Shown: positions 14,037-52,561 of the stretch, in pieces
How positions within the stretch are numbered: position 1 is the first letter of the stretch
How the letters are laid out: each line of letters opens with the position of its first letter
Source: Sphingobacteriaceae bacterium
Lineage (GTDB): Bacteria; Bacteroidota; Bacteroidia; B-17B0; Aurantibacillaceae
Length of the DNA: 64,000 nucleotides
Assembly: GCA_002319075.1 (NCBI GenBank)
Contig: NVQB01000001.1
Span: forward strand, 4,216,001 to 4,280,000
Direction of reading: 5' to 3'
The notes under the pieces: model-generated
Told to the model about the DNA's origin: nothing
Seen by the model: only the letters and a program-made list of their open reading frames with translations
Databases searched by the model: none
Made by a program: the position numbers and the translations under genes

Positions 14037-14068
14037 TACCTGAAATCTTATTCAACAGTACCGGAAAA
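14037..14068 (+). promoter_or_regulatory. Paired 22-bp regulatory site S1 (orphan)
   Basis: TACCTGAAAT at 14037 and TACCGGAAAA at 14059, 22 bp apart. It lies beyond the terminator of the giant-protein operon. In the orientation of the other sites it would drive leftward transcription, but the leftward region now contains only gene fragments. Confidence 0.6.
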
Positions 14069-14087
14069 CATCTAGTTCGAATTACTC

Positions 14088-14129
14088 CAAAAAAAATCTC
14101 CGGATATGGCTATGCAACATCCGGAGATT
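14088..14129 (-). terminator. Terminator of the giant-protein operon
   Basis: AATCTCCGGAT (14095-14105) and ATCCGGAGATT (14119-14129) form an 11-bp stem with a 13-nt loop; on the minus strand it is followed by a T tract. It sits 18 bp after the stop of the 598-residue gene. Confidence 0.85.
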
Positions 14130-14147
14130 CTAAATATTGTAGTATAT

Positions 14148-15944
14148 CTACTTCTGCATCAAATAATCAAATCTTAATTCGCTACTTGCTTCTCCTCTTC
14201 CATTCTGTTTTCTTCTACCCAGCCATAATGCAACCTGACCATGATGCCAGCGCGCACGTTGCCAGGTCATTGTTAATATTGCACCGGAACGCGGCACCTC
14301 TTCCTCCCAGATATAACTTCTCTGCCATGATGTATCTGTTGAGCCAGCCTTAAGTATCGTTGTCCGTGGTCTTACGCGACCACTCGGAGCATTATTTAGA
14401 ATTTGTCGCGCCATTGCTCCGCGTTGTAATTGAATATCCGGAACCCCAGTAGTTGACCCTCTGTTTACCGGTATAAACGGAATCCAGTTTTCAGGAACCC
14501 TTGTCATCAAATTATATTTTATTTCCGCAGTATTTGGATTACCAAATGTGGACGGAGTAGATCCAGCATTAGCTTCCAAGAATGCTGTCAATCGCTGAGC
14601 AGCTTCTTTACCAGGTTGTCCGCCTGAAACGCCATTAGGAATAATTGTTTCAATTCCCCAAACCATATTGGCCATCTCGTCGCGCATTAAATTCACGCTT
14701 TCCAATTCAGCACTCTCTTCCATATTTTGAACAACGGGTGGAATAAATAGTCTGGGATCAACAACATCAGAACCTTGAGTTTTGAGCGTGAACATGTTCC
14801 AGTCGTTATTACTGGCAGAGGTAATGTAAGTGACTTGTCCAAATACATCGGTCACAAGCACTTTACGAAGATTGCAAATTGACCCGGTAGGCACAGTATA
14901 AGGTAAAAGAGTCCAATCATTGCTGTATAAAGTTGCGAATTCACTAACTAAAAGTTGAGCAGTATCGGTAGTAGATGCACTCATATTTCCAATGTCAATA
15001 CGGCGATCTTCCATTTCCCAGAAGCGAGGGGCAGGCATACCTCCAAAACTTATTTTTGATGGAATTACAGTGAATGGCTGCTGTTCGATAAGCTCCCGCG
15101 CCGGATTATCGGATATCAATGAAGTAAACTGTGAATACTGGTCCTGGATATTGAAAGAGTACCAGTCCAAGTGGCCTTGATAATATTCTTCAGCACTAAG
15201 CACGCTATAAGCCGTGTCACTTTTGGGTGCAGAACATGTGAATTGGTATTCAAGATGATCATGAAGCCAGTAGTCTTCAGATGCTCCTGCTGGTTGAGAA
15301 TAAACACTATTATACCAAGCTAGAAATGCTAATCCAGTAGCATCTAGTTTTGAAGTCATCGAAGGGTTTGTTGGAGAAAAAGTAATAAGTGTTGATAGAG
15401 CAACTGCTGCTTTTAGCTGAGTTATGATTTTAAAACCATCTATAGCTCTTCCGTTACGAATTGCTAAGGTGGCTTGATGTAATTCTGGACTACTCAAGAA
15501 CTCTGGAGTCGTCGGCATTGGTGAACCAAATTTAAAAATAACTGTATTACGAACATTATCCAAAGCTGTATCAAGGGCTGGATCTGCTAAAGCATTTGGA
15601 GTTGTGCCCAAACTCTGTTGAAGCATTTTAATAAACTGTCTTCCTAATTCAATGCGGTGCAATAAATCAGGAACCACTGGTTCACGCTCTACAAGACATT
15701 CTAAAGGCACGTTAGTATCTATAGTCACATCTGCGCCTTGTTTTTTTGCTATACGATTTATGCGCGAAGTCTGCATATCAAGTCTGGCAAATGCTGCCGT
15801 GCCAGTATCTTCAGCATTAAATTCTCCAATTTGCCATTGGCGCGTTATCATCCACAGGGCGTCGCGTACTTCCGCGCGTAATGATCGCGCAAAACTGTTT
15901 GTTCTAGGGCGAGGCTCTAGTCTATTCCATGTTTGTACAGGCAT
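14148..15944 (-). CDS. Uncharacterised conserved protein, third gene of giant operon (598 aa)
   Basis: No signal peptide or membrane helix. The N-terminus has DALWMITRQWQIGEF at 28-42, followed by EDTG; a ready match, from memory, to unnamed proteins of several phyla with the signature LW-x-ARQWQ-x-GEF-x-GEDAG. The middle has a W/Y-rich segment (YYQGHLDWYSF). RFWEMEDRRIDIGN at about 305-318 and the C-terminal SYIWEEEVPRSG...TWQRARW block also look conserved. No catalytic motif is visible; a structural or binding role seems more likely than an enzyme (inference). It begins 20 bp after the 2145-residue gene, is the last gene of the operon, and is followed by a strong terminator. Confidence 0.75.
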   Translation of the reverse strand: MPVQTWNRLEPRPRTNSFARSLRAEVRDALWMITRQWQIGEFNAEDTGTAAFARLDMQTSRINRIAKKQGADVTIDTNVPLECLVEREPVVPDLLHRIELGRQFIKMLQQSLGTTPNALADPALDTALDNVRNTVIFKFGSPMPTTPEFLSSPELHQATLAIRNGRAIDGFKIITQLKAAVALSTLITFSPTNPSMTSKLDATGLAFLAWYNSVYSQPAGASEDYWLHDHLEYQFTCSAPKSDTAYSVLSAEEYYQGHLDWYSFNIQDQYSQFTSLISDNPARELIEQQPFTVIPSKISFGGMPAPRFWEMEDRRIDIGNMSASTTDTAQLLVSEFATLYSNDWTLLPYTVPTGSICNLRKVLVTDVFGQVTYITSASNNDWNMFTLKTQGSDVVDPRLFIPPVVQNMEESAELESVNLMRDEMANMVWGIETIIPNGVSGGQPGKEAAQRLTAFLEANAGSTPSTFGNPNTAEIKYNLMTRVPENWIPFIPVNRGSTTGVPDIQLQRGAMARQILNNAPSGRVRPRTTILKAGSTDTSWQRSYIWEEEVPRSGAILTMTWQRARWHHGQVALWLGRRKQNGRGEASSELRFDYLMQK

Positions 15945-15964
15945 ATCTTTTTATTTTAGTATTG

Positions 15965-18900
15965 TTATTGAGTTGAACCATTTCTATCAACAGGATAATC
16001 ATATCCTAGCGACGTATCAATGCCATTTTTGCCGAAGTCGAGTGAAGGCGATACATCAGAGCCACCACCACTTATTTGAGCCATGATAGCAGGCAGTACT
16101 TGGCTCAAAGGACTATCTTGAATCATGTCTGGCTCTACAGCACGAATTTGCGCCATTTGTATTGTTTCATTAAGCGTATCCATGAGATCATTCCAGGCCC
16201 AACTGCTTTTAATTTCAGGAGTAACGGCAAGAATAATACTTTGAGGTGCTTCAGAAGAGGGCTGATCATAATTAATCGCAATACCAGAGGTAACTTGATC
16301 AATAGGAATTTGTTCTGCCCACTCGTCAATCACCATCCCACAGGTTGGTATAGCTGAGGATGTTCCGTCAGATTCAATAATCATTGAAATAGCGTCGGGT
16401 GGAATTTCATAGCCAGTTGGTAATTTCATACCAATCCATCTGTCTGTTCCTGTGGTTGTATCTTTAACCGGAAATTGAAATACGTTCTGTTTTGTAAACG
16501 CAAAGGAGCTTGTAGATGCAGGACTATAACGCACACTTTCAGCAATAACCATTTGCTTATGATATTCACCCATGCGTGAGCGAACTCTCGCCACACCAGC
16601 CATCCATGCTTCAATAGGAAATGGACCCGCATCATCTAATAAGGTAGTATAATTTGAGGCAGCTTGAACTTCCGTTGCATTGTGCAATGTAAAAGTTGTA
16701 AATACTTTAAACGAACGCCCAAAAATAAGTTTTGCAATTTCTGCCAATTCGGTAACACAAACTTTATGTTTTGCAGCTGTGTTAGCTTGCCCCACCAAAA
16801 TAGTTACAGCTGACAATCTGGTATCGGCCTCATCATATCGTTTTTTTAAGTCTTTGTATGCGGTGTCAGCTTGTTCTACTAATCTATCTCTTGTCTCCAC
16901 AGTCGTCGACGAAAATGCTTCCGGATATGCTGTGGTAACTCCAAATTCTGAAGCCGTAACTAAAACTGTACGTAAATTATTTAGTTTAGTCGCGCCGCCC
17001 GCAGGAATTGCTGGTGCATAGACCATTGCGGCCACAAGGTCGCGTTTTGTTGTAGGGGTAGTAGTTGGTTGTCCACTAACGTAGACTGCCTCAAGATCAC
17101 CAATCAAGCCACTCATAGTAACCTTTGCAGTTGTAATCCGGTTTTTCAATGCTACGCTGTCTAGCGCTCCTGCTGGCGACGCCATGGCGCTGAGAACAGA
17201 TGGAAGTAAAAAATCATCAGGACTTAGTTGCCGCCCATTTCCTATAATTCTGCTAAGGCTCTTAAGCATAGGCGTTAACTGGAAAATACTGCATTGATCA
17301 GCCGTAAATCCGGTCTCGTCCATGAAAAAAATCTTTACTTCTACATCGTCAGTCAACGTATTTGCAGATCGAACGTAAGCTTTAATTCTGCGCGAAAGTT
17401 CGCTGGAGTCAGCTGATTGATTCTCTCCCGACGATTCAAAAATGTAAAGTAAATCTATTGGTTGCAAATTAAGATTTGCAACAGTTAGATTAAACATAGT
17501 TGCATTTGTTCCGTGCTTGTAATTAATGCGAATGTTCGCAGGCGTTGGGAGTTGAGATGCTAACCAGATATTTAAAGCAGGTTCGGCAGTCGCACGTGTA
17601 CTGCTTGCAGTCCAATTAGTATTGGCAATAGCTGGTGTAAACTGCACTGCACAGCGATGAGTAAACGTATCTGCCTGACGAGGAGTTTTTATTATTTCTG
17701 GTTCGGGTATATTCTTGGCATATCCAAGCGCTTGTAGCACACTACCTGCCCGTTCATGATTACCTTTAGTAATTTGAAATATGGCCTCTGATAATAACAA
17801 ATCTCCAATTGCATCTAGATCGTCTTTTATCTTTACAATCTCTTTTACAATATTTGCTCCATCAGTGGTGTAGGCACTTGTAGTGGTATTGTAAATTAAG
17901 GCGGGGTTGGATAAACCACTATACCAAAATGGCGTGGTAGTTCTAGCATAGTATTCAAGTAATTTTAAGCCATCAACGACATTTCTACTTTGTCCATCTT
18001 TATTCTGCCCCACGGGAGTTTGTGTAAGAGTTCCTGCAACGAGTGAGTAAAGACTTCGAAGATCTTCGATATAGCCGTCCAATGACGTGACGGAAGATTG
18101 CCTCTCATGCAAACCTCTTTCAAATCGATAACCTAACAATGCGGCAAGGTTCTGACCGTTACGAATACCATCAATGTAAAACATGGCTGTGCGCACACGA
18201 TCTGAAGAAAGGGTAACTGCCATAGTTTTTGCATTCGTCACTGTGCTGTTGTGAGCTGCATATCCTGCCCGCATTACAGCTGCTGCCACCGCATGGTTTA
18301 AAGATGGAGCGAGAATAAATCCTTTATTGTCTGTGTTATATTGCTGTCCAGAAACGATTTTTCCACTATCTGGATCTTCTATCAAAAGTGTATTAGGATC
18401 ATCGCCGAGGTAGACAAATGAAGCTGGTTGTGTTCCTGTCGCCTGCGCTGTAACATAAGCCCCTCCAGAATTAACTGGGTAACCATTTATTTCGGTTAGG
18501 TCAAGAATCTTACGCTGACCTTTTTTTGCGACTGCACCGGTCCAGGAATCTGCTGCACTAATATTTACAACGTGAACTCCCTTAAAAGAACCTGGTTTTG
18601 GCCTTTCTAAAATTCCATAGGCTCCGAGATAAATTCCATTTGGTGTTGCTGTCCTTTGTTCCTGAAGACGTTTGTTTACCAAACCATTAAACCACGAATC
18701 TAATCTGTAAGCACAAGTATCCAGGCTTTCAGCGAAAATACGTTCAAGGCGGGCCGTTGGTAAATTTTTTAGTTTAATGAGGGCGTTATTAGTATCCCGT
18801 AAATCGGTATAACATGGGTTTGTTGAATTTATCTGCGACCTAATATAGTCGCCTACTGATACATCACGAGAAATGGTGTCGTATTTTGCGCTAACATAAG

Positions 18901-21900
18901 CCCACTGATTTTCATTAACCGTGTACTCACTAAGTCGCTGATCGTATCTGCTGGTTGTGGAACTTGCAACCGAACTGGCTGATTGATCACGAAGGTAAAT
19001 TTCGTATTCGGCCTCGTTCAATCCCGATTGCTGATAGTGCGTATTAGTTGTGAGATTACGCATGGTATCCTCTATCACCAATTCATTTTCAAACTGCACT
19101 TCCGATCTTACAAAGCCAAGTAGCATGTCTTTTTGTTCAGCTGTAGCATTTGATGGTCCATTCTCAGCAGTCATCTTAGCGGCTTCATGGTTATGCCAGG
19201 CATCCTGGGTTATTGTCCCAGTCGTGGTCAAAAGGCAATGCGCTGTTTTAAGATACTCAAGCAACCATGCGTGTCTCAGTAATAAATATAACAAAGCTCT
19301 TGGAGCTTTAAAATCAGACGGTACTGGATTTTGAACGTTTGTGAAGTTTTCGCTCCGTATATTACCGATTGGACTACCTACTAACCATTCAATGTAGTTA
19401 GACGTGCTATTAGTCAGCTTTTCTAATTCCCTTATTTCTGACAAAGGCAGCGTATCTATCACTGGCCCGTTTAGTAACCATTGTGATCTTGCAAAACCCA
19501 TAGTGAAAATACGGGGGATGTTAAAGTAAGAAAAGCTCTGTAGAGAAGCACTCTTATATAAAGCATCAAGTTGAAGAGATGCATTTACGTCAGATAAGGG
19601 ACTTAATGGTTGAGTTATACCTGCAGCGGTCATAAATTTGGTCATGTTCGATGACAAAACCGCTCCAATACTTGTGCGTTGGTGAAATTGTAAGGAGCTT
19701 GGATGAAGCCCTAAAATATTAATTAGTAAATCACCGGGGTTGGCAGATCCTTGTTGTATGTGTTTAACCTTAACAAAAAAATTTGCTATCCAATACTTAC
19801 GAAGTCTTTCCAAGATGCCTTTATGCAATTTGGCTTCGTAAATTGTTTTATCGCTGTACTTCCATTTAGAATAAACAGTAGATGTCAAAATACCATAAGG
19901 TTGATTTCGAACTCTGAACGCTGGAATAAGTCCTCTTCCTAAAACATAGTTGGTAAAAAAACTCCGCGTGTCATCAATATGGCTTTGAACTATAGATGGT
20001 GTTAGCATATTTTTTGCGTAATATCCCATTGTTGCCGGCCACAATGCACGATTCATAGCCATTCCTTCTTCAACATCTTTCGTTTTGCTGTTACGTATAT
20101 GTTGAAAAACAGACGTATTTACACCGAGCGCTTCTGCAATTCTTTGACCATCGGCTTTATCATAATGTGTGCTTGTCGTAGTAAATTGATTTGCGCCTAA
20201 TTCTATCTCAAAACTTTCCTCATATCCTGGTTCTAAACTAGCAAACCCAGATTTGCTTTCTTCTGTATTATTAGTAGGCGTACCCTGCGGCACCAGCGCT
20301 AAGCCGGCAGAGTAGTGATGATTGTCTAGAAGTGTTTCAAGTTCCTGTTTAGATGCCGTTGCATTTAAATCTAACTTCGTACCAAGTACTAATAAACGGT
20401 CGAAACCATCATTTTTTTCATTATTTTGAAGTGTAATACGGATTCCCATCCCGATTTTTTCAGCTTCTTCAAAATCAGTAAGCCAACGTAGATCCGCGGG
20501 CATATTAATCTCGCTGCCATTTTGATCAAGATAATTCGTGTACGGATCCATCGGATCAAACCCCACTGGCAATGGCGAAGGAACTGGCTGACCTACCACC
20601 TCTCGGTAAGTGTTATTGCTGTATACACGAACTACAAATCGCTCAGGCATAACCCGAGTTTCCGGCTTTTGTGACCACGACGCTGTTTGCAAAGCTATAG
20701 TTGGAAGCGTGGGAAAAGGATTTAATATCGTTAATGACGGGTCGGTTAAACTTGGATCATCCGCAGGCTTGCCTGTTGTGCCTGGATTAGTCTGTGAAAC
20801 GATCCACGCTGCTCGCTTCGATCCGTAAGAACTGCACAAAACCCTCCACGCACCTAGTTCAAATTTTTTAACGCCGCAAGCTTTCCATACTTCGTTCCAA
20901 TAAATTTGCGCGTCATCTTTTTCAGTCTGCGTGAGTTTACTTTCGTGTGTATGTATAGAAATTGCATCAGGATAGATCCTTACCCAAAGCTCATGTAAGT
21001 CTGCAATGGCCTCTGAAACAGTTGCAGTGGGTACTGTGCTGCCTGTCACCGGTGGAGAGCTGTAAGTTACCGTCCTGCTATCTGTCACAGTCTTTATCGC
21101 TTGTACATCCGCATCAGTTCTTATAACGCTTGTGTAAGAGGAATAAGATATATTGTCGCGAACATGTTTAATGGTCATAAAACGCGTCTCCAAACGCACT
21201 GGTAAAAGGGCGAAAGGTATATTGTCGTTTAACAACTGCACTTTTAATCTTGGATCAGCACTATAAAAATCGAAGAGATTCCAGAATACACTTGTAGCAC
21301 TGGCTAACTTGCTTCCTGTAGACTCAGCGTAAATCGCCATTATATGAAACTTATCTACCGTTACTCGGAAATCTTTGTAATAAGCTATTTCGGCTGCTGT
21401 GCCAGTTCTAAATTCGAGTTGCTTACTATAAGCTTCGAGCTCGTTGTAAGCAATTGTTAGTAGACGGGCATTTTCATTTATAATCTTCGCTTCAGCTCTT
21501 CTTTCCGTTGCTGTTGCTTTTGCAGTGGGAAGGTCTGGATTACTTGCTTCACTTGTAAAACCTACTGCCGCTGATTTTAACTGTCTAAGCAGAGCATCTT
21601 GTGAGGTACTTTTAGATGGAGCAGCGGCTATTAAATTATTAATTGACGTTTTAACTGTGTTTAATAAAGTGTCAGTGGTAACATTTATTATGCCTTTCAC
21701 CAAGCCATCTCCAAGGGTTTTCAGATTCGTTCTGGCGGTCTGCATTGCGCTGATAACTGGCGTCATGTCATCTGAGATAGTTTTTGCCTGAACTAACAAA
21801 GTATTAACTTGTGCTGCAGTTTTAGGAGCGATAGAAGCTATGAGTTCCTGTAATTTAGTCTTCACGGCGAGTAGACGCGCTGTATAGGTGCTGGCATTAC

Positions 21901-22402
21901 TTTCCGAAAAGTTTACCACAGTGAAATCACGCTCTAATTGAGCATCAAATTGTGTTACAAAATTTCGCCTCTGTGAACCAGGTGTGCCAATATTAAAATG
22001 TTGACGAATCTCTGTAATTTCATTATAGATTTGATGGGTTTCTGCGGCATCATTATACAGATTTACAGCATCATTATAGAGAGTGTTTACAGTATTTAAT
22101 GCACTATTCATGCTAGCAGACGTGTCCACAACCAAAGTATTAGCGGCGTCAGCTAGACTTGAAAGTATACTTGTAATAGGTTCCGAGTCATCATTCATCT
22201 GTTCGTCAGATGTAGATAACATATTGGTTATCTGATTAAGTGTTGGATTATTAGTATAGGGAATACTGTTATTTTGAAATCCATTAGCTAATTGAATAAA
22301 CTGGGGGTGCACTTCGTTTTGAAGACGATCTTTGTGAGCCGCAAGTCTGTTTACAAGATCAGGGGCATTCCCTAAGAGTGTGTTTAAAGTTGTAATAGTC
22401 AT
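15965..22402 (-). CDS. Giant uncharacterised conserved protein, second gene of operon (2145 aa)
   Basis: No signal peptide or transmembrane segment. Residues 1-340 are alanine/threonine-rich and helical, probably coiled coil. The conserved core starts near 397 with FALLPVRLETRF, then ELWVRIYPDAISIHTHE (about 465-482, with a following SKLT-x-x-E), MPERFVVRVYSN, and a block RGLIPAFRVRNQPYGIL near 822-838. I recall these phrases from very large unnamed proteins in other bacteria, always without known function. The remaining C-terminal 1300 residues alternate helical and beta-rich parts and contain no recognised enzyme motif. It lies 39 bp after the 992-residue gene and 20 bp before the 598-residue gene, so the three products are made together and may form one complex. 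Confidence 0.78.
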   Translation of the reverse strand: MTITTLNTLLGNAPDLVNRLAAHKDRLQNEVHPQFIQLANGFQNNSIPYTNNPTLNQITNMLSTSDEQMNDDSEPITSILSSLADAANTLVVDTSASMNSALNTVNTLYNDAVNLYNDAAETHQIYNEITEIRQHFNIGTPGSQRRNFVTQFDAQLERDFTVVNFSESNASTYTARLLAVKTKLQELIASIAPKTAAQVNTLLVQAKTISDDMTPVISAMQTARTNLKTLGDGLVKGIINVTTDTLLNTVKTSINNLIAAAPSKSTSQDALLRQLKSAAVGFTSEASNPDLPTAKATATERRAEAKIINENARLLTIAYNELEAYSKQLEFRTGTAAEIAYYKDFRVTVDKFHIMAIYAESTGSKLASATSVFWNLFDFYSADPRLKVQLLNDNIPFALLPVRLETRFMTIKHVRDNISYSSYTSVIRTDADVQAIKTVTDSRTVTYSSPPVTGSTVPTATVSEAIADLHELWVRIYPDAISIHTHESKLTQTEKDDAQIYWNEVWKACGVKKFELGAWRVLCSSYGSKRAAWIVSQTNPGTTGKPADDPSLTDPSLTILNPFPTLPTIALQTASWSQKPETRVMPERFVVRVYSNNTYREVVGQPVPSPLPVGFDPMDPYTNYLDQNGSEINMPADLRWLTDFEEAEKIGMGIRITLQNNEKNDGFDRLLVLGTKLDLNATASKQELETLLDNHHYSAGLALVPQGTPTNNTEESKSGFASLEPGYEESFEIELGANQFTTTSTHYDKADGQRIAEALGVNTSVFQHIRNSKTKDVEEGMAMNRALWPATMGYYAKNMLTPSIVQSHIDDTRSFFTNYVLGRGLIPAFRVRNQPYGILTSTVYSKWKYSDKTIYEAKLHKGILERLRKYWIANFFVKVKHIQQGSANPGDLLINILGLHPSSLQFHQRTSIGAVLSSNMTKFMTAAGITQPLSPLSDVNASLQLDALYKSASLQSFSYFNIPRIFTMGFARSQWLLNGPVIDTLPLSEIRELEKLTNSTSNYIEWLVGSPIGNIRSENFTNVQNPVPSDFKAPRALLYLLLRHAWLLEYLKTAHCLLTTTGTITQDAWHNHEAAKMTAENGPSNATAEQKDMLLGFVRSEVQFENELVIEDTMRNLTTNTHYQQSGLNEAEYEIYLRDQSASSVASSTTSRYDQRLSEYTVNENQWAYVSAKYDTISRDVSVGDYIRSQINSTNPCYTDLRDTNNALIKLKNLPTARLERIFAESLDTCAYRLDSWFNGLVNKRLQEQRTATPNGIYLGAYGILERPKPGSFKGVHVVNISAADSWTGAVAKKGQRKILDLTEINGYPVNSGGAYVTAQATGTQPASFVYLGDDPNTLLIEDPDSGKIVSGQQYNTDNKGFILAPSLNHAVAAAVMRAGYAAHNSTVTNAKTMAVTLSSDRVRTAMFYIDGIRNGQNLAALLGYRFERGLHERQSSVTSLDGYIEDLRSLYSLVAGTLTQTPVGQNKDGQSRNVVDGLKLLEYYARTTTPFWYSGLSNPALIYNTTTSAYTTDGANIVKEIVKIKDDLDAIGDLLLSEAIFQITKGNHERAGSVLQALGYAKNIPEPEIIKTPRQADTFTHRCAVQFTPAIANTNWTASSTRATAEPALNIWLASQLPTPANIRINYKHGTNATMFNLTVANLNLQPIDLLYIFESSGENQSADSSELSRRIKAYVRSANTLTDDVEVKIFFMDETGFTADQCSIFQLTPMLKSLSRIIGNGRQLSPDDFLLPSVLSAMASPAGALDSVALKNRITTAKVTMSGLIGDLEAVYVSGQPTTTPTTKRDLVAAMVYAPAIPAGGATKLNNLRTVLVTASEFGVTTAYPEAFSSTTVETRDRLVEQADTAYKDLKKRYDEADTRLSAVTILVGQANTAAKHKVCVTELAEIAKLIFGRSFKVFTTFTLHNATEVQAASNYTTLLDDAGPFPIEAWMAGVARVRSRMGEYHKQMVIAESVRYSPASTSSFAFTKQNVFQFPVKDTTTGTDRWIGMKLPTGYEIPPDAISMIIESDGTSSAIPTCGMVIDEWAEQIPIDQVTSGIAINYDQPSSEAPQSIILAVTPEIKSSWAWNDLMDTLNETIQMAQIRAVEPDMIQDSPLSQVLPAIMAQISGGGSDVSPSLDFGKNGIDTSLGYDYPVDRNGSTQ

Positions 22403-22441
22403 AAGTAAAGCTTATAAATTCAAAATTATTTGGGTTATTTT

Positions 22442-25420
22442 CTAAGGTATCATTTCGTTAGCGTGAATAAATACCTGTACAGGCTGCTGGTAAAGTATTT
22501 GTGCCATAGCGGCTGAGTCTTCCGCCCAAAGAGTGTCGGTTGATTCTGGCTTAAATACTTTTGCATCAGATGGCGCTGAACTGGAGAATCCGGGTGACTG
22601 GTTTAATAACAAGTATTTGCAATAGTTTTTAGCAACATGATCCCAAGTAAGTTCCGCCCAGTTGTTTAAAGGAAGGGTCGGTGGAGGCAATGGCTCATCT
22701 AGACCAAAGCGCAGCTCTCCGGTTCGTTCCATTAAAACAAAGAACCATCCTGGAATCGGTGGATTCAAAGTTTTATCCCCCTTCGCAGCAGTATCAGTCA
22801 GATCGAATCCCAAGAATGTAATTTCCGGATCAATATCTGCCCTAAAAATTGGCATCTTAACAGCGGCTGTTTCATCAGGAATGCGCTTTTTACTATAATC
22901 TAAACCTGGGCCGCTTTGATTTGGCGGATATGTTGCTGGCACTGCGTAAATAATAATGTTTGGAAACTTTTTTAACAGATCGCCTCGTATCGCTAATACA
23001 AGGGTGTTGCCTACCGTAACGGGTCTGGTAGAATGACTCCCAAGAGCAGTGTTCCCCCAGCTGTACATATCTGTTATATCTGTTGTAGGTGTTGTGGCAT
23101 CTACACTACTCCAAAAATGTTTAAAATAGGTGCCCCGCTGATCGGTTGGATACTCACGCCATAACAATTCTCGTCCCATCTCATAATTAGCCCCGGCAAG
23201 AAAAGCTTCTATAAATTTCTGATTAGATTTTAAAAGTGTTATTGAATTTTGTGGGATCAGATTTAAATTCGGAACAAGGTAGTCGACTCCCAGTTCGAGA
23301 AGCGACTTGTACATAGGAAGCTTAAAAGATGGAGCTGCCATTGCAGGTAATATTACTACTGGAGTTGTGGTTTGGTTAGGATTATTTACGCTACCATAAA
23401 AACTGTTGGTGTGTGTTACGGAAGGATTAATACCATCGGCCACAGTTGCAGAACTTGTGGTTAAATTAGGTGCGTTTGCAGGAGTGGCCCAATTCGCAGC
23501 AGCATATACTCCGCTATAGGCCGAGAAACTACCCTTAAAGTTATTGGCTACTGTATAACTTGCGCTCGGCATCGTGCCCTGTGGCAAACTAATATTAAAT
23601 TGAATAGAAGGTTGAATTGCAGCATTCTTAATTGCTGTAACTGAATAGTCGAGACTACTAATATCAAAGGTCGCGTACTGTAGTGGTAAGGCGGGTTTGG
23701 GAGCCACAGGCGCCGCATTTCCTTGTATCATCCTTGCCACTGGATTGTTAGTTTGGCCAACCGTAAAGCTAACCCTTCTCATAATAGCTCCATTAGGGCT
23801 ACTTAGCCTGCGAAAAGTTGATGATGTTGCACCAACCGCCATGCTACTACTTACGGCAGCCTGTTTCACAGTCGTTGTCCCACTTCTAATTCTTCCCAGC
23901 ACATTAGTAGTCATCGGTAAAATTTGTTCGATGGGTTGTGAGGCAATGTGTTTTGCATGCATTGCTGCTGAGGTATTCGCGGTAAGTTGTGCAATGTTCG
24001 CTTTTCTATTTGTGTCCAAAACTTTGCCTACCTGGCTCCAGGCCTCTTTCATTAATAAATCCTGATTTTTACGTACATAGTCTCCACCAAGGGAAGCTGC
24101 AACTCTGTAACGAGGATCAAGATTTAATTCATTTAACCAGGGAATTCCTGTACTCGTATTTAATTTATTTTGCAACGCGTGCCAACGTCCATACATCGGT
24201 GGCGTAACAATCGGATCGTCTCCGAGGGAATTGCTGCTATTCCCGGGATCAAGAGTAGTGTAAATAGTATTAGTAATAGTTGCACTCTGAATGTCTTGTC
24301 CTAGATTTATAAAGTCACGTAAATAATTACGATAATTGGTTTCATTTGTTCCTGTTGGGAAAAGCGGTGCATTATAGCCTGCGATTCCCAATGCCCCTTC
24401 GAGCATTTCGGTGCCTGCTGTCGGCCCTGCTGTACTGGCGAGTTGCAGACCATAACCAGGATCCTGAATATCCATAAGTCTTTTACCCACACGTTGGTCC
24501 AGCAATCTCGGTTTTACTTGTCGTACCAAATATTCAAAATCTCCCGTCGCTCCTGTTCTAAAGTACCATTCATGATAAATTGGAAATGTTCCAAGCTGTT
24601 CGTCAGGAGTGCCCGGCCAAGGTGTTGCATGATTCCAGGCAGGAGCTTGAGCCATGATACCTGATGTGGATAATCCTAATCCGGCTCTCCGACCAGTTTC
24701 ATAGGTCGGAATAAGAAAGGCGTAGTAGGATGTATTTTCTTCTAGTTTTCTTGGGCAAAGCAATCTGGAGATTCCTATGTAGGGCTTGTCTTTTATTTTC
24801 TGATCAAGCGCTGCAAGGTCAGCGTCCAGATTCGTAGGCGTTACCTCATCATCAACGCTAACATGTGCCCATGCCCAAACTTCCTCGTTAAAAGGTAGTG
24901 GCCTATTTAATGGAGTTGTGAGGGGATCTAATACAACTGCATTTAATGGTGCATCTTTTAACGTTGCACGGGTAAATTCATCTTCCTTCAATACGATAAG
25001 AGTTAACCAAGGTCTTAATTTACCTCCTTCAGTTGCGTTAGGTACTGAGGGAAACTTTGCTACTGCTGGACTATAACGCCAAGGAAAATCCTCTTCATAA
25101 AAGTCAATGAAAGGAAAACTGTGGGGCTCAAAATTGGTGATCCAGTCGCGAGGTTCTGTTTTTACAATCGCGTCTGGATGAATCCCTATAACATCACCTG
25201 GTCCTATGATCTGGAAATCCATATCCAATGGACTAGCAGAAGCTGGAACAACCGCATTGCTTGAATTTTTTACATTTACGTGAACATATGCTTTTATGGT
25301 AGGGCGTTCGGTAACATTTGATGTTCCTTGCGTGGTACCATCAAAAATTTCAGTTTGTGAAATTTGGGAAGCCAGTCCTCGTCTGGCCCACGGAAGAAAG
25401 GTGTGATTTGCGTCGCTCAT
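22442..25420 (-). CDS. Uncharacterised conserved protein, first gene of giant operon (992 aa)
   Basis: No signal peptide. It starts with HTFLPWARRGLASQIS (6-21); further conserved-looking blocks are GPGDVIGI at 73-80, FPFIDFYEEDFPWRYSPA at 102-119, KLRPWLTLIVLKEDEF near 134-149, ELLWREYPTDQRGTYFKHFW near 752-771 and, near the C-terminus, PGWFFVLMERTGELRFGLDEP. From memory these mark a family of unnamed proteins that accompanies the other two giant proteins elsewhere. A serine/threonine/proline-rich, low-complexity region lies in the middle (about 480-680). It is the first gene of the operon; the paired regulatory site S2 lies 123 bp upstream. Confidence 0.77.
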   Translation of the reverse strand: MSDANHTFLPWARRGLASQISQTEIFDGTTQGTSNVTERPTIKAYVHVNVKNSSNAVVPASASPLDMDFQIIGPGDVIGIHPDAIVKTEPRDWITNFEPHSFPFIDFYEEDFPWRYSPAVAKFPSVPNATEGGKLRPWLTLIVLKEDEFTRATLKDAPLNAVVLDPLTTPLNRPLPFNEEVWAWAHVSVDDEVTPTNLDADLAALDQKIKDKPYIGISRLLCPRKLEENTSYYAFLIPTYETGRRAGLGLSTSGIMAQAPAWNHATPWPGTPDEQLGTFPIYHEWYFRTGATGDFEYLVRQVKPRLLDQRVGKRLMDIQDPGYGLQLASTAGPTAGTEMLEGALGIAGYNAPLFPTGTNETNYRNYLRDFINLGQDIQSATITNTIYTTLDPGNSSNSLGDDPIVTPPMYGRWHALQNKLNTSTGIPWLNELNLDPRYRVAASLGGDYVRKNQDLLMKEAWSQVGKVLDTNRKANIAQLTANTSAAMHAKHIASQPIEQILPMTTNVLGRIRSGTTTVKQAAVSSSMAVGATSSTFRRLSSPNGAIMRRVSFTVGQTNNPVARMIQGNAAPVAPKPALPLQYATFDISSLDYSVTAIKNAAIQPSIQFNISLPQGTMPSASYTVANNFKGSFSAYSGVYAAANWATPANAPNLTTSSATVADGINPSVTHTNSFYGSVNNPNQTTTPVVILPAMAAPSFKLPMYKSLLELGVDYLVPNLNLIPQNSITLLKSNQKFIEAFLAGANYEMGRELLWREYPTDQRGTYFKHFWSSVDATTPTTDITDMYSWGNTALGSHSTRPVTVGNTLVLAIRGDLLKKFPNIIIYAVPATYPPNQSGPGLDYSKKRIPDETAAVKMPIFRADIDPEITFLGFDLTDTAAKGDKTLNPPIPGWFFVLMERTGELRFGLDEPLPPPTLPLNNWAELTWDHVAKNYCKYLLLNQSPGFSSSAPSDAKVFKPESTDTLWAEDSAAMAQILYQQPVQVFIHANEMIP

Positions 25421-25542
25421 AATTTACTAAGTCGAATTTGTTTATATATACTGCTCTGCTAATTGTAAGGCATACTTCAATCATACACCTTGTATAATTT
25501 TATAAGTTTAACTCCTGCACAATGAATGTGCAAGAACAGGTG

Positions 25543-25574
25543 TACCTGATTTTTGTTGCTCAGGTACTGGAAAT
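25543..25574 (+). promoter_or_regulatory. Paired 22-bp regulatory site S2
   Basis: TACCTGATTT at 25543 and TACTGGAAAT at 25565, spaced 22 bp, in the 178-bp gap between the 992-aa gene start and the end of the upstream DUF6603-like gene. Confidence 0.65.
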
Positions 25575-25590
25575 GGATTGTCTTACTCGC

Positions 25591-31885: not shown

Positions 31886-31917
31886 TACCGGAAATTCAAT
31901 TGTTAGGTACGGGAAAT
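31886..31917 (+). promoter_or_regulatory. Paired 22-bp regulatory site S3
   Basis: TACCGGAAAT at 31886 and TACGGGAAAT at 31908, 22 bp apart, upstream of the pseudo-M64/DUF6603 module. On the minus strand TAATTTAG, a -7-like box, begins 33 nt past the proximal half-site. Confidence 0.7.
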
Positions 31918-36635: not shown

Positions 36636-36667
36636 TACCGGATTTTTAGACACTTACTACCGGAAAT
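36636..36667 (+). promoter_or_regulatory. Paired 22-bp regulatory site S4
   Basis: TACCGGATTT at 36636 and TACCGGAAAT at 36658, 22 bp apart, 59 bp upstream of the SBBP gene start. Confidence 0.72.
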
Positions 36668-40191: not shown

Positions 40192-43100
40192 ATTTTTGGG
40201 TTGAAGTGTCGATTATATTCTTCATTAAGGATTCTATGTTTGGATGGATCTATCCGATTTACCATTATGTACCTGCAAATCGGGCAAAAAGGCATATCTC
40301 CCTTTGAATCACTACCACGCATTGCACAGTAACCTGTTGGATGATAAACATCTTTCGAAGCTTCACCGCCACCCCCGAACAACCCAACAACGTTTTCGTG
40401 TAATATCAAAACATCAAATTTCTTGTAGATGCTTTTTTCCTCGTCATTATGGGAACGATCAAAAGTTAGTTGTGTCAGAACTGGGTATTGTATGTCGTCA
40501 TCTGATCCTGGATAAGGTTCAGCGGTCATTGGTCTATTATTATTTGTAATCGCTAACCTTACGCTGTTATTAATCATTTCAGCATATTTTTCTTTTGGTA
40601 TAATAGAATATTGCTTATCAACAGTGATACTGGGAACCGCGTTAGGTTGTACCGTTTTTAATGTAATGTTGGTATCATCGTCGACATAATCAACAACGTA
40701 ATTATTGCCATCGGCTATTAATACGGCACCACCTCCAAATCCCAACTCAGCTACCTGCGTCAAAAACCAAGTATCTGTGCCTTGCACTTTTTTAGTAGTC
40801 ATGTCAATCTTAATTGTACCGAATCCTCGGACCTCAGAGGAAACAAGTTTTACCAACAAACTGCCAACTGGCAGGGCTCCTGGATTATTGTCTACAACAA
40901 TGATATTTTGATCAGGCTTAATATTAACAATAGTGACTTCTGGACCATAATATTCGGGTCCTTGTTCTGGTTGTGGTAGTGCCCCCGGCGGTGGAGGTAC
41001 CTGATCGTTTTCAACAACATCACCAATATCCCGTCTCCTTAATCTAACCTTATCAGTGATTTTAAATCCCGTTAAATGGCTTGCCGCGGCCAATGTTATA
41101 TCCGTGTTAGGAGCGTTGGCTTGAATAGCGGCAACTACTCCAGATGCTGCAAAACGCAACCAGCGCCAAGGGATATTATCTCCGACAAAAAGCACAGGCT
41201 TTACCACTGATTTTGGAACGAGATTATATAGTTCTTCATCATTATACTTTAAATTTTTGTCGTCACCTTCATACTCGTCGCCTAACCAAAATGTATGTGC
41301 TAATTCATGAGTAACAGTTCCGAACACGTGATCAGGTATCTCAGACGGAATTGCTATAGGTGTAAGATCAAGTTGCCTTCCAGCCCCTGCTGTTGCACCC
41401 TTGAAGTATGTATCAGGATTTAGGGAAATGCACAAGGTATCTGTTCTTCTTTTATTGTTGGTATTATCGCGTTGCGTTCCTCCATCACATGGCCCATGCA
41501 TTAGAAACGCTACAAAATCAAAGTCTTTATTGAATCCGGCGCCATTTTTTGCCCAAACTCCACCTACCACTGGAGCCGCTGCGCTTGCTGAACGTATATT
41601 TTTTAGCAGATTGTCAAAATTGTTGCGGTTCATTCTTTGATAACCTGGCCCAACTGATACAGAACTTGACGGTAGCATACCATCTCGTCGCGGGGCGGAA
41701 GAAAATTCGAGTTTTAATGCAGTATTTCTGTGATTAATCAGCCTTCGCTCGCCGGTACATAACCAACATTTATAAACATCGTCATAAACGTGTGGATCAG
41801 GTGACGCCCCCCCTGTCACTCCCTCAAGGGTTATCGTTGGGTGATATAATGTCTGCCATTTAGCTAATACCTCCGCTTTTGACGCAAGGGTATCTGATGG
41901 GGTGGCCAGTCCTACCTTTGCAACCAATTCACTCAGGCGTTGCTCATAGTCAAGAGATATTTTACTTGCTCTTTGTTTCAAATAACGAGCTGCAGTCCCA
42001 ATGTCTTCATTAGTATCCTTGAGATAGATTGCTTTTATTATAATTGCACCGTCTTTTTCTTCGCTTTGTGATAAAAAACTATCAACGCCATTAATAAAAG
42101 TATCTACATCTGCTAATTTATCATAAGTGGTTTCTGTTGGCGGAAGGCCTTTGGGGTACTCGTCAACTAATACCTGAAACGGGATTTGCTCGCTTCGCAC
42201 CGTGCATTCTGACTGTTGCGAAGGAAGAAACAAAGACCAAAAGTTCATATTCGGTGAAATTAAATCCCAGGGTCTTTTAGTCACCCTGTTTATCATTTTA
42301 CATCGTAAATCAGAAACCATCCTTTCAAAGTCAGCTTCTTCACTACTAGCAAACCCTTCACTAATAAAAAGTATATTCGGGAAGTCATTAATTCGTTCTT
42401 CCGCGGGACCGCCAGCAAATTGGACCTTGGGCTGACTGGCTTGCGATAAAGTGGGGTTTTGCCAGGAATCCAGTATAGTTAAGGTACCTGGCGTTATCGT
42501 CAGGTTATTGTTAGCGTTGTTGATCGGCGAACCAATCGCTATCACAGCATTTATTTCAATCGAGGGTACACCAATACTTGCTGCAAGTGGAGTAAATTTT
42601 CCCGTGTTCGCTACGGAAATTAGAGCGCTATTCGAACCCCAAGTAATGTCTGGATGAAAGGTGATGTCTCCGACTGTTCCCTCTGAAAATTCAGCGTAGA
42701 TTGAAAACATATTATTATCTTCCTCGGCAATAACATCCATGGCAGAAGGGGTCATCCAAGCACTCACAATTGCATCATGTACATGCACCCGATAACTCGT
42801 TTCAGTTAGGTGGTCGGATGTTTCCATTGTTACTTTAACATCAAAATTGAAATTTCTATTGCAATCGGGGTCTCCGGGCGCCAGGGCACTGGCATAAACT
42901 TCTCCTGTATTGGTGTCAAAAGCGATTCCATATGTGGAAATTTGAAATGGCTGGGGATATGTACCGGGCTGATTGATATGGTTAGTATGAAAAGTTTCTG
43001 CACCCAATAGATTAGGAATAAACATCACACTACTGTAATCATTCGCGTTCGGAAATGGTGGATAGGGTGAAGGAGGTGCAGTATTATTTATAACGTCCAT

Positions 43101-43268
43101 TAATCGGTAGTATGTATCATCACCTTCAAAGTTAACCCCTAAATGGTTACGCATATCATGTGTTGGGATACCGTTTCGTAATACATGCACATCAAATCCG
43201 AGATAATGTATACGCGTGCCTGCATATTCCAATTGTTTGGGATCCCAGATAATATAATCTATTGGCAT
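40188..43268 (-). CDS. M64-family (IgA peptidase-like) metallopeptidase (1026 aa)
   Basis: The zinc motif HELAH (His654, Glu655, His658) followed by GDEY (663-666) is intact, and NILFISEGFASSEEADFERMV (about 299-319) is the typical start of the M64 domain. The C-terminus has the CxxC block MPFCPICRYIMVNRI, preceded by a CAMRGS segment, as in M64 enzymes. Residues 1-290 are beta-rich, with Ig-like features. Between HExxH and the C-terminus is an insert of about 250 residues (proline-rich PPPPGALPQPEQ). There is no signal peptide, unusual for a family known from secreted enzymes. It lies 3 bp after the YD-repeat-like gene and overlaps DUF6603-like copy B by ATGA; likely one transcript from site S5. 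Confidence 0.8.
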   Translation of the reverse strand: MPIDYIIWDPKQLEYAGTRIHYLGFDVHVLRNGIPTHDMRNHLGVNFEGDDTYYRLMDVINNTAPPSPYPPFPNANDYSSVMFIPNLLGAETFHTNHINQPGTYPQPFQISTYGIAFDTNTGEVYASALAPGDPDCNRNFNFDVKVTMETSDHLTETSYRVHVHDAIVSAWMTPSAMDVIAEEDNNMFSIYAEFSEGTVGDITFHPDITWGSNSALISVANTGKFTPLAASIGVPSIEINAVIAIGSPINNANNNLTITPGTLTILDSWQNPTLSQASQPKVQFAGGPAEERINDFPNILFISEGFASSEEADFERMVSDLRCKMINRVTKRPWDLISPNMNFWSLFLPSQQSECTVRSEQIPFQVLVDEYPKGLPPTETTYDKLADVDTFINGVDSFLSQSEEKDGAIIIKAIYLKDTNEDIGTAARYLKQRASKISLDYEQRLSELVAKVGLATPSDTLASKAEVLAKWQTLYHPTITLEGVTGGASPDPHVYDDVYKCWLCTGERRLINHRNTALKLEFSSAPRRDGMLPSSSVSVGPGYQRMNRNNFDNLLKNIRSASAAAPVVGGVWAKNGAGFNKDFDFVAFLMHGPCDGGTQRDNTNNKRRTDTLCISLNPDTYFKGATAGAGRQLDLTPIAIPSEIPDHVFGTVTHELAHTFWLGDEYEGDDKNLKYNDEELYNLVPKSVVKPVLFVGDNIPWRWLRFAASGVVAAIQANAPNTDITLAAASHLTGFKITDKVRLRRRDIGDVVENDQVPPPPGALPQPEQGPEYYGPEVTIVNIKPDQNIIVVDNNPGALPVGSLLVKLVSSEVRGFGTIKIDMTTKKVQGTDTWFLTQVAELGFGGGAVLIADGNNYVVDYVDDDTNITLKTVQPNAVPSITVDKQYSIIPKEKYAEMINNSVRLAITNNNRPMTAEPYPGSDDDIQYPVLTQLTFDRSHNDEEKSIYKKFDVLILHENVVGLFGGGGEASKDVYHPTGYCAMRGSDSKGDMPFCPICRYIMVNRIDPSKHRILNEEYNRHFNPKI

Positions 43269-44294: not shown

Positions 44295-44360
44295 TCAGTA
44301 AGAGATTAATTGCTAGCTAATAAATATAATGGAATAAACCCAACGATTCAAGAAGACGGT

Positions 44361-44392
44361 TACCGGAAATTCGCCCCTCAACTACCGGAAAT
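44361..44392 (+). promoter_or_regulatory. Paired 22-bp regulatory site S5 (perfect)
   Basis: Two identical half-sites TACCGGAAAT at 44361 and 44383, 22 bp apart. On the minus strand TATATTTA, a -7-like box, begins 33 nt beyond the proximal half-site, and the start codon is 67 bp away. Confidence 0.8.
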
Positions 44393-49381: not shown

Positions 49382-49441
49382 ATATTTATGGGAGTTTGAA
49401 ACAAATTAAATACTTCATTACTTCCATTACAATTAAATTGG

Positions 49442-49473
49442 TACGGGAAAATTTGCGTCTTACTACTGGAACT
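49442..49473 (+). promoter_or_regulatory. Paired 22-bp regulatory site S6
   Basis: TACGGGAAAA at 49442 and TACTGGAACT at 49464, 22 bp apart, 61 bp before the lysozyme-like gene. On the minus strand TTAATTTG begins 33 nt beyond the proximal half-site. Confidence 0.65.
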
Positions 49474-49484
49474 GAAATAATCTA

Positions 49485-50336: not shown

Positions 50337-50384
50337 TTATGGATAAATGTACCATACACTAATACTGCTGGAAAAATTTTTCAC

Positions 50385-50416
50385 TACCGGATTTTCACTC
50401 TTCAGGTACCAGAAGA
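50385..50416 (+). promoter_or_regulatory. Paired 22-bp regulatory site S7
   Basis: TACCGGATTT at 50385 and TACCAGAAGA at 50407, 22 bp apart. On the minus strand TACATTTA begins 34 nt beyond the proximal half-site, ahead of the gene starting at 50336. Confidence 0.6.
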
Positions 50417-50514
50417 GGAGCAATATTTTGTTGAAGACTATAAACCAATAACATGTTCGTTAGATCATTGCTTGTATTCTTTTCTAACCTTACATATACC
50501 CAAAATCCCGAAGA

Positions 50515-50709
50515 ATGCGCAAATCCAAAGAATCAAAATATAAAGTTGTCTGCGAAGTAATAAACCGAACGACCAACAAAACGCATTTCGAAAATCAAAT
50601 CATAACTTTGGAGAATCGAAAAAGAGTATTTTCTGATCGGGAAATTCTTTCGAAAATCATTTACACTAACGTTATTGCCATCAACAGTGTTGATCTAGTG
50701 GTAGATTAA
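50515..50709 (+). CDS. Small hypothetical protein
   Basis: A 64-residue basic protein (MRKSKESKYKVVCEVINRTTNK) without signal or membrane segment, one of few plus-strand frames in the cargo. It lies in the gap between the response regulator (convergent) and the membrane-protein gene (divergent). Codon pattern looks plausible but there is no recognised family; it could be spurious. Confidence 0.4.
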   Translation: MRKSKESKYKVVCEVINRTTNKTHFENQIITLENRKRVFSDREILSKIIYTNVIAINSVDLVVD

Positions 50710-50770
50710 TGCAACGTTTACGTTTTTATTTCGGTCACTTGTATGAAATGAGGTTCAAAAACCAGGTAAT

Positions 50771-51439
50771 TTACATGATTGTAAGTATCCGGTGTTTCAA
50801 AGCGTATAAGATTAATTCCGAAATCGATTTACTTTCTATATTGGTCTTATGCCAAATACAGTTTCTGTTATAATCAATAGTTCGCTCTGATCTGTGTAAT
50901 TTGTCGGCAATTTTTTTTGTCGCCAAACCAAGGCACATGAGTTTTAAAACCTGGATCTCCTGAAAGTTCAGGTTAACTTCGTTTTTGGTTTTAGAATTAA
51001 GATCGTTTGCCGAATCTGCAATTGCCTTGGCCATAATTTCAGAAACTGTTTCGTCAAAGTAATGTCCTGTTGTATAGACTGTGCGAATGGCTTCAACAAT
51101 TTTTTTCGTAAGCATGGTTTTACTTAGAATAGCAGGTACTTGCTTCTTGATAAAATTAACTACGAATGATTCGTTGAAATGTCCAGTGAGTATGATTACC
51201 TTTATTTCTGGGTATTTTTGTTTTATCAGTTCTAGAGTTTCTTCTCCATTCATACCATTCATATCCAAATCCATCAACACAATATCAGGTGAATGAGTCT
51301 TAAGTTTTTCCATCACTTCACCGCCATCATTGGCGTCAAATACAACTCTCAAGTCGCTATATTTTTCAAACAGCGACATAAGACCTTCTCTGAAAGGCGT
51401 GTGATCATCGGCTATAGCCAAAGAAATTTTATTAGGCAT
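50771..51439 (-). CDS. NarL/FixJ-type response regulator
   Basis: A 222-residue regulator. The receiver domain (1-120) has the acidic pocket Asp11-Asp12, phosphoacceptor Asp57 in IVLMDLDMNG, Thr in IILTGH, and Lys in AILSKTM. The C-terminal LuxR-type helix-turn-helix (about 158-215) contains EIQVLKLMCLGLATKKIADKL and SERTIDYNRNCIW. It is preceded by the kinase gene with 24 bp between them. It is the only sequence-specific regulator encoded intact in the island and so the first candidate for binding the repeated TACCGGAAAT pairs, although the geometry of those sites is not typical of NarL proteins. Confidence 0.85.
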   Translation of the reverse strand: MPNKISLAIADDHTPFREGLMSLFEKYSDLRVVFDANDGGEVMEKLKTHSPDIVLMDLDMNGMNGEETLELIKQKYPEIKVIILTGHFNESFVVNFIKKQVPAILSKTMLTKKIVEAIRTVYTTGHYFDETVSEIMAKAIADSANDLNSKTKNEVNLNFQEIQVLKLMCLGLATKKIADKLHRSERTIDYNRNCIWHKTNIESKSISELILYALKHRILTIM

Positions 51440-51463
51440 ATAAAATTTTTACAAAAATGATTA

Positions 51464-52324
51464 CTAATTATACGAGAGTTCACTTGATGGTATTACGCAG
51501 CTTATCGCAGGCCCATTCTTATCATCGGAATAAGTAACCTTAGCCTTTTGTATGAGCATTCGACTCTTAATAGATTTCAACCCAAGACCTTGATTGGAAT
51601 GAATAATTCTTTCGATTTTTTCAGTAGTCGTTTTTTGTCCATCATGATCAATCTGGATTAAAAGACTTTTCTTTTGCATAGAAATAGTTATTGTTAATGA
51701 GTTAGGACGCGCATGTTTCATAACATTATTCAATAGTTCAAGGCAAATGCGATAGATGTTGAGTTCATCCTGCTTATTAAAATATTTCGAAATTTTCTCA
51801 TTCACAAAAACATTACACTTAGCCTTTAATTTCCCGCCTTGGTTAATATGTCTCACATGATCTTGCAAAGTTGCGAAAAGCCCATTCTTTAGTAAAAATG
51901 CAGGCACTAAATTATTCGCACATGCCGTTACAGCCTCACGTATCATTTCAATGTTACCAATCTCCTCATAATACTCATCAAGAACAAATTTTCCATTCTC
52001 GATATTAAAAGCGTGCTTTTCAAGCACCTGTTTATGAACCGCAAGCATAAGATTTATTTCGTCATGTAAATTTCTTGCTATTCGCTCTCGCTCTTCCTCT
52101 TCTGCTTGGGAAGCAGACTTAAAAATAGACAACTTCTTTTCAAGTTCTCGATCATGGTACTCTTTTTCTTTTGCCCGCCTCGTCTGCTTTCTAACATTTA
52201 AAATATAAATGTTGACGCAAACGATTGCCGCCAAGCATACCACGAAAAAAGAAGCTCCGTAAAAAACACTTTGATGTTCCACAATTAAATTATTTATAAA
52301 GTTTTGGCATTTGATCAAATGCAT
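51464..52324 (-). CDS. Histidine kinase (HisKA_3 type), NarX/LytS-like
   Basis: A 286-residue kinase. One transmembrane helix at about 20-42, then a coiled coil, and the HisKA_3 dimerisation/phosphorylation segment EEEERERIARNLHDEINLM with His87. The ATP-binding domain follows: N-box LELLNNVMKHARPN (about 190-204), IQIDHDGQ as a modified D-box (usual DNG replaced by DHDG) and GLGLKSIKSR. There is no sensory domain outside the membrane, so the signal is probably membrane-derived or comes from a partner. Upstream is a paired site (S8) in reverse orientation. Confidence 0.85.
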   Translation of the reverse strand: MHLIKCQNFINNLIVEHQSVFYGASFFVVCLAAIVCVNIYILNVRKQTRRAKEKEYHDRELEKKLSIFKSASQAEEEERERIARNLHDEINLMLAVHKQVLEKHAFNIENGKFVLDEYYEEIGNIEMIREAVTACANNLVPAFLLKNGLFATLQDHVRHINQGGKLKAKCNVFVNEKISKYFNKQDELNIYRICLELLNNVMKHARPNSLTITISMQKKSLLIQIDHDGQKTTTEKIERIIHSNQGLGLKSIKSRMLIQKAKVTYSDDKNGPAISCVIPSSELSYN

Positions 52325-52529
52325 AAATTTGTAAGTCCAATTACAGAAAACGAAACAAATATGTAAAAGATACGATGCGGTTGGGTAAAATATATTGTTC
52401 CAAAGTAGTTAAAATAACTTTCGAAATTTAGTCATATCGGGCATCTCACGTTAAATTATTGTAACGTACATTTTCTTACATGTTCAGATTCAAGCACATC
52501 ACCGAAAAATATTGAGAATGACAGGCGGA

Positions 52530-52561
52530 AAATCCGGTAGTTGATTCAAGTATTTCCGGTA
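52530..52561 (-). promoter_or_regulatory. Paired 22-bp regulatory site S8 (reverse orientation)
   Basis: On the minus strand TACCGGAAAT starts at 52561 and TACCGGATTT at 52539, 22 bp apart. It is the only copy inverted relative to the others. It lies 215 bp upstream of the kinase gene, and in the usual orientation it would drive rightward transcription into a gene-poor region. Confidence 0.72.

What the first reader, a model, noticed from the sequence alone, without database searches (positions are those of the whole stretch)
14037..52561. Eight paired direct-repeat sites, TACCGGAAAT-N12-TACCGGAAAT, forming a putative island regulon
Seen directly: half-site pairs at 14037/14059, 25543/25565, 31886/31908, 36636/36658, 44361/44383, 49442/49464, 50385/50407 and, inverted, 52561/52539. 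Every pair is separated by exactly 22 bp and lies outside coding sequence. Six sit before the successive transcription units starting at 25420, 31741, 36577, 44294, 49381 and 50336. In four cases a -7-like box (TAATTTAG, TATATTTA, TTAATTTG, TACATTTA) begins 33-34 nt beyond the proximal half-site, where an activator just upstream of the -33 element would bind. This ties the whole cargo into one regulatory system. I did not see paired copies in the flanking chromosome.
Basis: partly seen in the sequence, partly recalled or inferred. Interest (0 to 1): 0.92.

Follow-up and report, generated by a model that had tools for sequence, protein, structure and literature searches.

The report
Island-wide paired operator regulon
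A 42-kb block of acquired DNA in a Bacteroidota chromosome carries the same two-copy DNA tag, always 22 bases apart, at a fixed distance in front of nearly every promoter of the block and nowhere else in the genome, so a single switch, probably the two-component system encoded on the block, most likely turns the whole block on together.

Summary
Eight intergenic places carry TACCGGAAAT-N12-TACCGGAAAT; the one at 52530-52583 is a triple. Dinucleotide shuffles give none. A strict form of the pair matches 7 times in the 5.65-Mb genome, all inside the island. No other genome of about 470 Bacteroidota searched has more than 3. The six weak matches outside the island lie inside long open frames.

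The island (11657-53360) is bounded by a 17-bp repeat of the tRNA-Asn 3' end and is absent at that tRNA in the nearest relative. Six pairs head six same-strand units that together hold every cargo gene.

This fixed register is reached by 0 of 2,000 shuffles.

Best explanation: operators of one island-dedicated activator, most likely the island's NarL-type response regulator (50771-51439) with its kinase. Geometry resembles the plantaricin (LytTR) and BvgA (NarL-family) promoters. Regulator identity is inferred. No other island shares the motif, so conservation could not be tested. Function of the cargo is unknown.

The parts
11657..11673 (+). attL-like 17-bp repeat AGCCCAGGAGAGGGAGC, the 3' end of tRNA-Asn (11599-11673)
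53344..53360 (+). attR-like copy of the 17-bp repeat; right end of the island
   Evidence: two relatives have tRNA-Asn followed directly by a GIY-YIG gene or gene fragment
14037..14068 (-). operator pair facing the decayed left end; TTG at 14025-14027, -7-like TATTATTA at 13997-14004
25543..25574 (-). operator pair before unit 22442-25420 / 15965-22402 / 14148-15944; TTG 25531-25533, -7-like TAAACTTA 25503-25510
31886..31917 (-). operator pair before unit 29117-31741 / 25599-29120; -7-like TAATTTAG 31846-31853
36636..36667 (-). operator pair before unit 33677-36589 / 32764-33591 / 32015-32767; no good -7 box at +42 (weak TATCATAT at +40)
44361..44392 (-). perfect operator pair before unit 43272-44294 / 40188-43268 / 36739-40191; TTG 44349-44351, -7-like TATATTTA 44321-44328
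49442..49473 (-). operator pair before unit 48602-49381 to 44505-44972 (seven ORFs); TTG 49430-49432, -7-like box at 49402-49409
50385..50416 (-). operator pair before 49485-50336; -7-like TACATTTA 50344-50351
52530..52583 (+). triple operator (three boxes, 22-bp period) in the intergenic region upstream of the kinase-regulator operon; boxes face right, away from the kinase gene
50771..51439 (-). NarL/FixJ-type response regulator (receiver + LuxR/GerE HTH), proposed binder
   Evidence: Pfam Response_reg 4.8e-23 and GerE 2e-08; best solved relative NarL
51464..52324 (-). HisKA_3-type histidine kinase with a short N-terminal membrane segment, proposed partner
   Evidence: Pfam HATPase_c 1.7e-07, HisKA_3 0.003
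25599..29120 (-). cargo: DUF6603 protein, first copy
   Evidence: E 5e-132
36739..40191 (-). cargo: DUF6603 protein, second copy
   Evidence: E 1e-131
40188..43268 (-). cargo: M64-like peptidase
   Evidence: E 2.5e-06
14148..25420 (-). cargo: three large proteins (992, 2145 and 598 aa) without Pfam family, conserved as a cassette with DUF6603 in other Bacteroidota

Best explanation
The paired boxes are operators of a single transcriptional activator dedicated to this 41.7-kb tRNA-Asn genomic island. Each pair puts two binding units on the same face of the helix, two turns apart, directly upstream of a housekeeping-type Bacteroidota promoter. Read in the gene direction the promoter is ATTTCCGGTA-N12-ATTTCCGGTA-N9-TTG-N20-TAnnTTTA. 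Bound activator would contact RNA polymerase at the -33 element and switch on all six cargo units together. The most likely activator is the island's own NarL-type response regulator, phosphorylated by the adjacent HisKA_3 kinase. It would bind as one dimer per box, with only one half of each dimer site well conserved. The triple box upstream of the kinase-regulator operon would give feedback control. Shown here: the sites, their confinement to the island, their fixed register to -33/-7 sequences, and complete coverage of the cargo units. Inferred: that they are bound, by which protein, that the effect is activation, and the signal.
For: Pairs exceed chance. Strict pairs: 7 of 7 in the genome lie in the island, against at most 3 in any of about 470 other genomes. 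TTG at +19 in 4 of 7 pairs and a TAnnTTTA-like box at +42/43 in 6 of 7; 0 of 2,000 shuffled and 0 of 2,000 rolled controls reach the observed -7 register score. Six pairs head six same-strand units that hold every cargo gene from 50336 down to 14148. Of the island proteins scanned, the response regulator is the only intact one with a recognised DNA-binding domain, and a triple box lies upstream of its operon. The absence of strict pairs elsewhere argues against a chromosomal regulator with older targets. BvgA, of the same regulator family, binds as dimers spaced 22 bp with the proximal one abutting -35 (PMC7250471).
Against: No binding or expression data. No relative of the island with the motif was found in 85,000 genomes (exact pattern only) or in IMG/VR, so phylogenetic footprinting is impossible. 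Single-protomer direct repeats 12 bp apart are typical of LytTR regulators, and the genome has 29 LytTR domains, though none in the island. The triple site faces away from the kinase gene, and no convincing promoter in its register was found towards the kinase. A dyad partner for each box is only weakly visible. One of seven pairs lacks a good -7 box.
Confidence: 0.68

Rival explanations
1. The boxes are operators, but of a LytTR-type (or AraC-type) regulator encoded elsewhere in the chromosome, one protomer per box, as in the plantaricin regulon.
For: Two 9-10-bp direct repeats with a 12-bp spacer directly upstream of the core promoter is the PlnC/PlnD geometry, consensus TACGTTAAT (PMC2714321). 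The genome has 29 LytTR domains. The boxes are asymmetric with a weak dyad.
Against: None of the 29 LytTR genes lies in the island and no strict pair exists elsewhere in the genome, so such a regulator would have no other target with this site and no site of its own. An acquired island normally brings its dedicated regulator.
Confidence: 0.2
2. The pairs are repressor operators (or silencing sites) that keep the island off until a signal arrives.
For: A tandem site close to -33 can hinder polymerase, and PlnD represses from the same kind of repeats (PMC2714321 abstract).
Against: The boxes sit upstream of -33 in a fixed register and do not overlap the -33/-7 core, which is the usual activator position.
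Confidence: 0.15
3. The pairs are module boundaries or recombination sites by which cargo units were assembled, not regulatory sites.
For: They lie between units, and the island has duplicated modules (two DUF6603 genes) and decayed transposase and other remnant genes.
Against: The register to -33/-7 sequences is fixed. The sequence conserved between units is limited to the boxes and the promoter, with no inverted repeat or shared recombination core. Sites also lie near the island ends, where there is no module junction.
Confidence: 0.05
4. Chance or compositional artefact.
For: AT-rich genome; six weaker matches elsewhere.
Against: 0 of 100 shuffles; the outside matches all have 3 mismatches and lie inside long open frames; strict matches are island-only.
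Confidence: 0.01

Closest known systems
Plantaricin (pln) regulon of Lactobacillus plantarum, PlnC/PlnD (LytTR) tandem repeats
   Same: Two conserved ~9-bp direct repeats with a 12-bp spacer directly upstream of the core promoter of several operons of one locus, under locus-encoded response regulators (PMC2714321)
   Different: Regulator is LytTR-type; here the island regulator is NarL-type. Box consensus TACGTTAAT versus TACCGGAAAT; Gram-positive host; known bacteriocin cargo
BvgA-activated promoters of Bordetella (NarL-family response regulator)
   Same: Regulator family; binding units repeated every 22 bp on one helix face; proximal unit abuts the -35 region (PMC7250471)
   Different: BvgA sites are inverted heptads and often degenerate; here a single strong 10-bp box recurs in direct orientation and the partner half-site is weak or absent
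Sigma-ABfr promoters of Bacteroidota (TTTG at -33, TAnnTTTG at -7)
   Same: -33 and -7 like sequences at the expected spacing beside the pairs (PMC7366714)
   Different: Core elements are imperfect (mostly TAnnTTTA, TTG in 4 of 7), as expected for activator-dependent promoters

Membership tests
PlnC/PlnD-type (LytTR) tandem-repeat regulon | Two ~9-bp direct repeats, 12-bp spacer | tested here: met
PlnC/PlnD-type (LytTR) tandem-repeat regulon | Repeats directly upstream of the -35/-33 element | tested here: met
PlnC/PlnD-type (LytTR) tandem-repeat regulon | LytTR-type regulator encoded in the same locus | tested here: not met
   29 LytTR domains in the genome, none in the island; island regulator is GerE/LuxR-type
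BvgA-like NarL-family activation | NarL-family response regulator with partner kinase | tested here: met
BvgA-like NarL-family activation | Binding units spaced 22 bp, proximal one next to the core promoter | tested here: met
   precedent
BvgA-like NarL-family activation | Inverted half-sites within each dimer site | tested here: inconclusive
   best inverted partner at offset +8, 38% matches against a 26% average over offsets
BvgA-like NarL-family activation | Phosphorylation-dependent DNA binding by this regulator | not testable with these tools
   needs purified protein
tRNA-associated genomic island | Direct repeats at both ends, one in the 3' end of a tRNA gene | tested here: met
   17 bp, 11657 and 53344
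tRNA-associated genomic island | Absent at the same tRNA in relatives | tested here: met
   992-aa cargo protein absent in the 86 other family genomes; relatives show other sequence or the GIY-YIG gene after tRNA-Asn
tRNA-associated genomic island | Intact integrase | tested here: not met
   only an ISL3 transposase in two pieces and short fragments at the left end

The most novel reading that the evidence does not exclude
A self-contained two-component switch of a Bacteroidota island in which a NarL-type regulator uses direct-repeat operators two helical turns apart (a LytTR-like layout) to turn on all six cargo units as one programme, including an uncharacterised DUF6603 cassette found in other Bacteroidota and with relatives on Streptomyces and haloarchaeal plasmids.
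Probability: 0.4. Interest if true: 0.6.

Novelty: new member of a known kind. Interest (0 to 1): 0.45.

Why it matters
It gives a precise, testable operator code for an island whose cargo has no known function. Finding the signal that activates the kinase would show when this widely distributed DUF6603 cassette is used. It also offers a case for seeing how a NarL-type regulator works with direct-repeat sites at Bacteroidota promoters.

Tried and rejected
Exact pair pattern over 85,000 GTDB genomes and IMG/VR: 36 stretches, all chance matches or simple repeats, none beside a homologue of any island gene. Orthologues of the regulator: none above about 41% identity in the family, none at E 1e-50 in the phylum sample, and no shared motif at the loci looked at. 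Related DUF6603 cassettes in eight Bacteroidota: gene order kept, no box pairs and no convincing repeated 19-24-bp motif of their own before several units (the one cluster, in G441, is a local repeat array). Viral contigs for the regulator and the 992-aa protein: nothing. Solved-structure search for two cargo proteins: nothing for DUF6603; for the 992-aa protein only weak matches to designed armadillo repeats over about 110 residues, which I do not trust. PADLOC: no defence families among six cargo proteins. Rfam on 50300-53500: nothing. Paper searches for DUF6603 and for the box sequence gave nothing relevant. The p350 homologue in another genome (G331) has the amidohydrolase beside it but no box pairs and no homologue of the regulator.

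Full report
CHECK OF THE OBSERVATION. The pattern TACCGGAAAT-N12-TACCGGAAAT with up to three mismatches occurs six times in the window, against none in 100 dinucleotide shuffles. Aligned in the direction of the genes (ATTTCCGGTA), all 17 boxes keep TC..GTA. The distal boxes carry some further conservation on their promoter side. All places are intergenic.

CONFINEMENT TO THE ISLAND. In the whole 5.65-Mb genome the loose pattern finds island pairs and six others, each with three mismatches; these six all lie inside long open frames. A stricter pattern taken from the boxes (WWTCMNGTA twice, 22-bp period, no mismatch) finds seven matches, all in the island and none elsewhere. The other genomes of the family and of a 382-genome phylum sample have 0 to 3 each, close to the level of the reversed-pattern control.

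THE ISLAND. A 17-bp repeat of the 3' end of tRNA-Asn occurs at 11657 and 53344. In relatives the same tRNA is followed by unrelated DNA; in two of them it is followed at once by a homologue, or a fragment of one, of the GIY-YIG gene that lies just outside the right repeat in the window. The 992-aa cargo protein is absent from the 86 other genomes of the family searched. The left end holds an ISL3 transposase in two pieces and short remnants; no intact integrase is present. Cargo genes between 14148 and 52324 are all on the minus strand. The gaps between them divide them into the regulator operon and six units, and each of the six units starts with one pair.

REGISTER WITH THE PROMOTER. Counting from the first base of the proximal box, TTG stands at +19 in four of seven pairs (TTC and TTT in two others), and a TAnnTTTA-like box at +42 or +43 in six of seven. 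The mean -7 score at that offset is 4.79, against 3.68 and 3.63 for shuffled and rolled controls (best offset of each); 0 of 2,000 of either reach it. These resemble the -33 and -7 elements described for Bacteroidota (PMC7366714). The pairs thus sit directly upstream of a core promoter at a fixed distance, which is the position of an activator.

WHICH REGULATOR. The island encodes a NarL-type response regulator and a HisKA_3 kinase. No other intact island protein that was scanned has a recognised DNA-binding domain. The triple box lies upstream of their operon, though it faces the other way and no convincing promoter in its register was found towards the kinase. Two known layouts resemble the pairs: the plantaricin regulon, with 9-bp direct repeats, a 12-bp spacer and LytTR regulators (PMC2714321), and BvgA, a NarL-family regulator whose dimers are spaced 22 bp with the proximal one against the -35 region (PMC7250471). 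The first matches the box geometry but not the regulator; the second matches the regulator and the spacing, but the inverted half-sites it requires are only weakly visible here. The genome has 29 LytTR domains, none in the island. Since no strict pair exists outside the island, a dedicated island regulator is the simpler reading. This step is inference.

RELATED SEQUENCES. DUF6603 occurs in 17 of 392 Bacteroidota genomes searched, the window's own included. In eight of them it is followed by relatives of the 992-, 2145- and 598-aa proteins in the same order at about 25-40% identity, without the box pairs and without a recognisable relative of the two-component system. The gene before DUF6603 varies: subtilase in two, a PhoD-like protein in one, M64-like here. 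Relatives of the 992-aa protein lie on plasmids of Streptomyces, haloarchaea and others, mostly 'hypothetical' or unannotated. No second island with the motif was found, so conservation of the operators could not be tested.

VERDICT. A real, statistically strong, island-confined operator set with a fixed promoter register. It is best explained as one activator regulon, probably of the island's own two-component system. The kind is known; this motif, regulon and island were not found described. Regulator identity, sign of regulation, signal and cargo function remain to be shown.

Noticed in passing
window 14148-31741 and 36739-43268; L030-L045: A cassette of DUF6603 plus three very large proteins (992, 2145, 598 aa) is kept in order in eight other Bacteroidota, preceded by a variable enzyme (subtilase, PhoD-like, here M64-like). 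Plasmids of Streptomyces and haloarchaea hold relatives of the 992-aa protein. Function unknown.
   Followed up: partly
window 25599-29120 and 36739-40191: Two DUF6603 proteins in the island are nearly identical over their C-terminal halves but differ in their N-terminal parts (by eye).
   Followed up: no
window 52584-53343: About 760 bp without a convincing gene lie between the triple box and the right repeat, on the side the triple box faces; perhaps a lost gene or an RNA.
   Followed up: partly
window 53701-53715: A second fragment of tRNA-Asn (GGGGTCCCTGGTTCG) follows the GIY-YIG gene, which is thus flanked by two tRNA fragments; some relatives show similar fragments, suggesting a hotspot for repeated insertion.
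   Followed up: partly
window 13292-13913: Short ORF and a partial Cro/C1-type HTH at the left end look like remnants; the 122-aa ORF may be the end of a serine recombinase (reading by eye, no family match).
   Followed up: no
L162/L163 (G331:C31:47000-86999), joined coordinates 19473-22114: Homologues of the 350-aa membrane protein and the amidohydrolase are also neighbours in another Bacteroidota genome, with a different 21-bp-period repeat about 300 bp upstream.
   Followed up: partly
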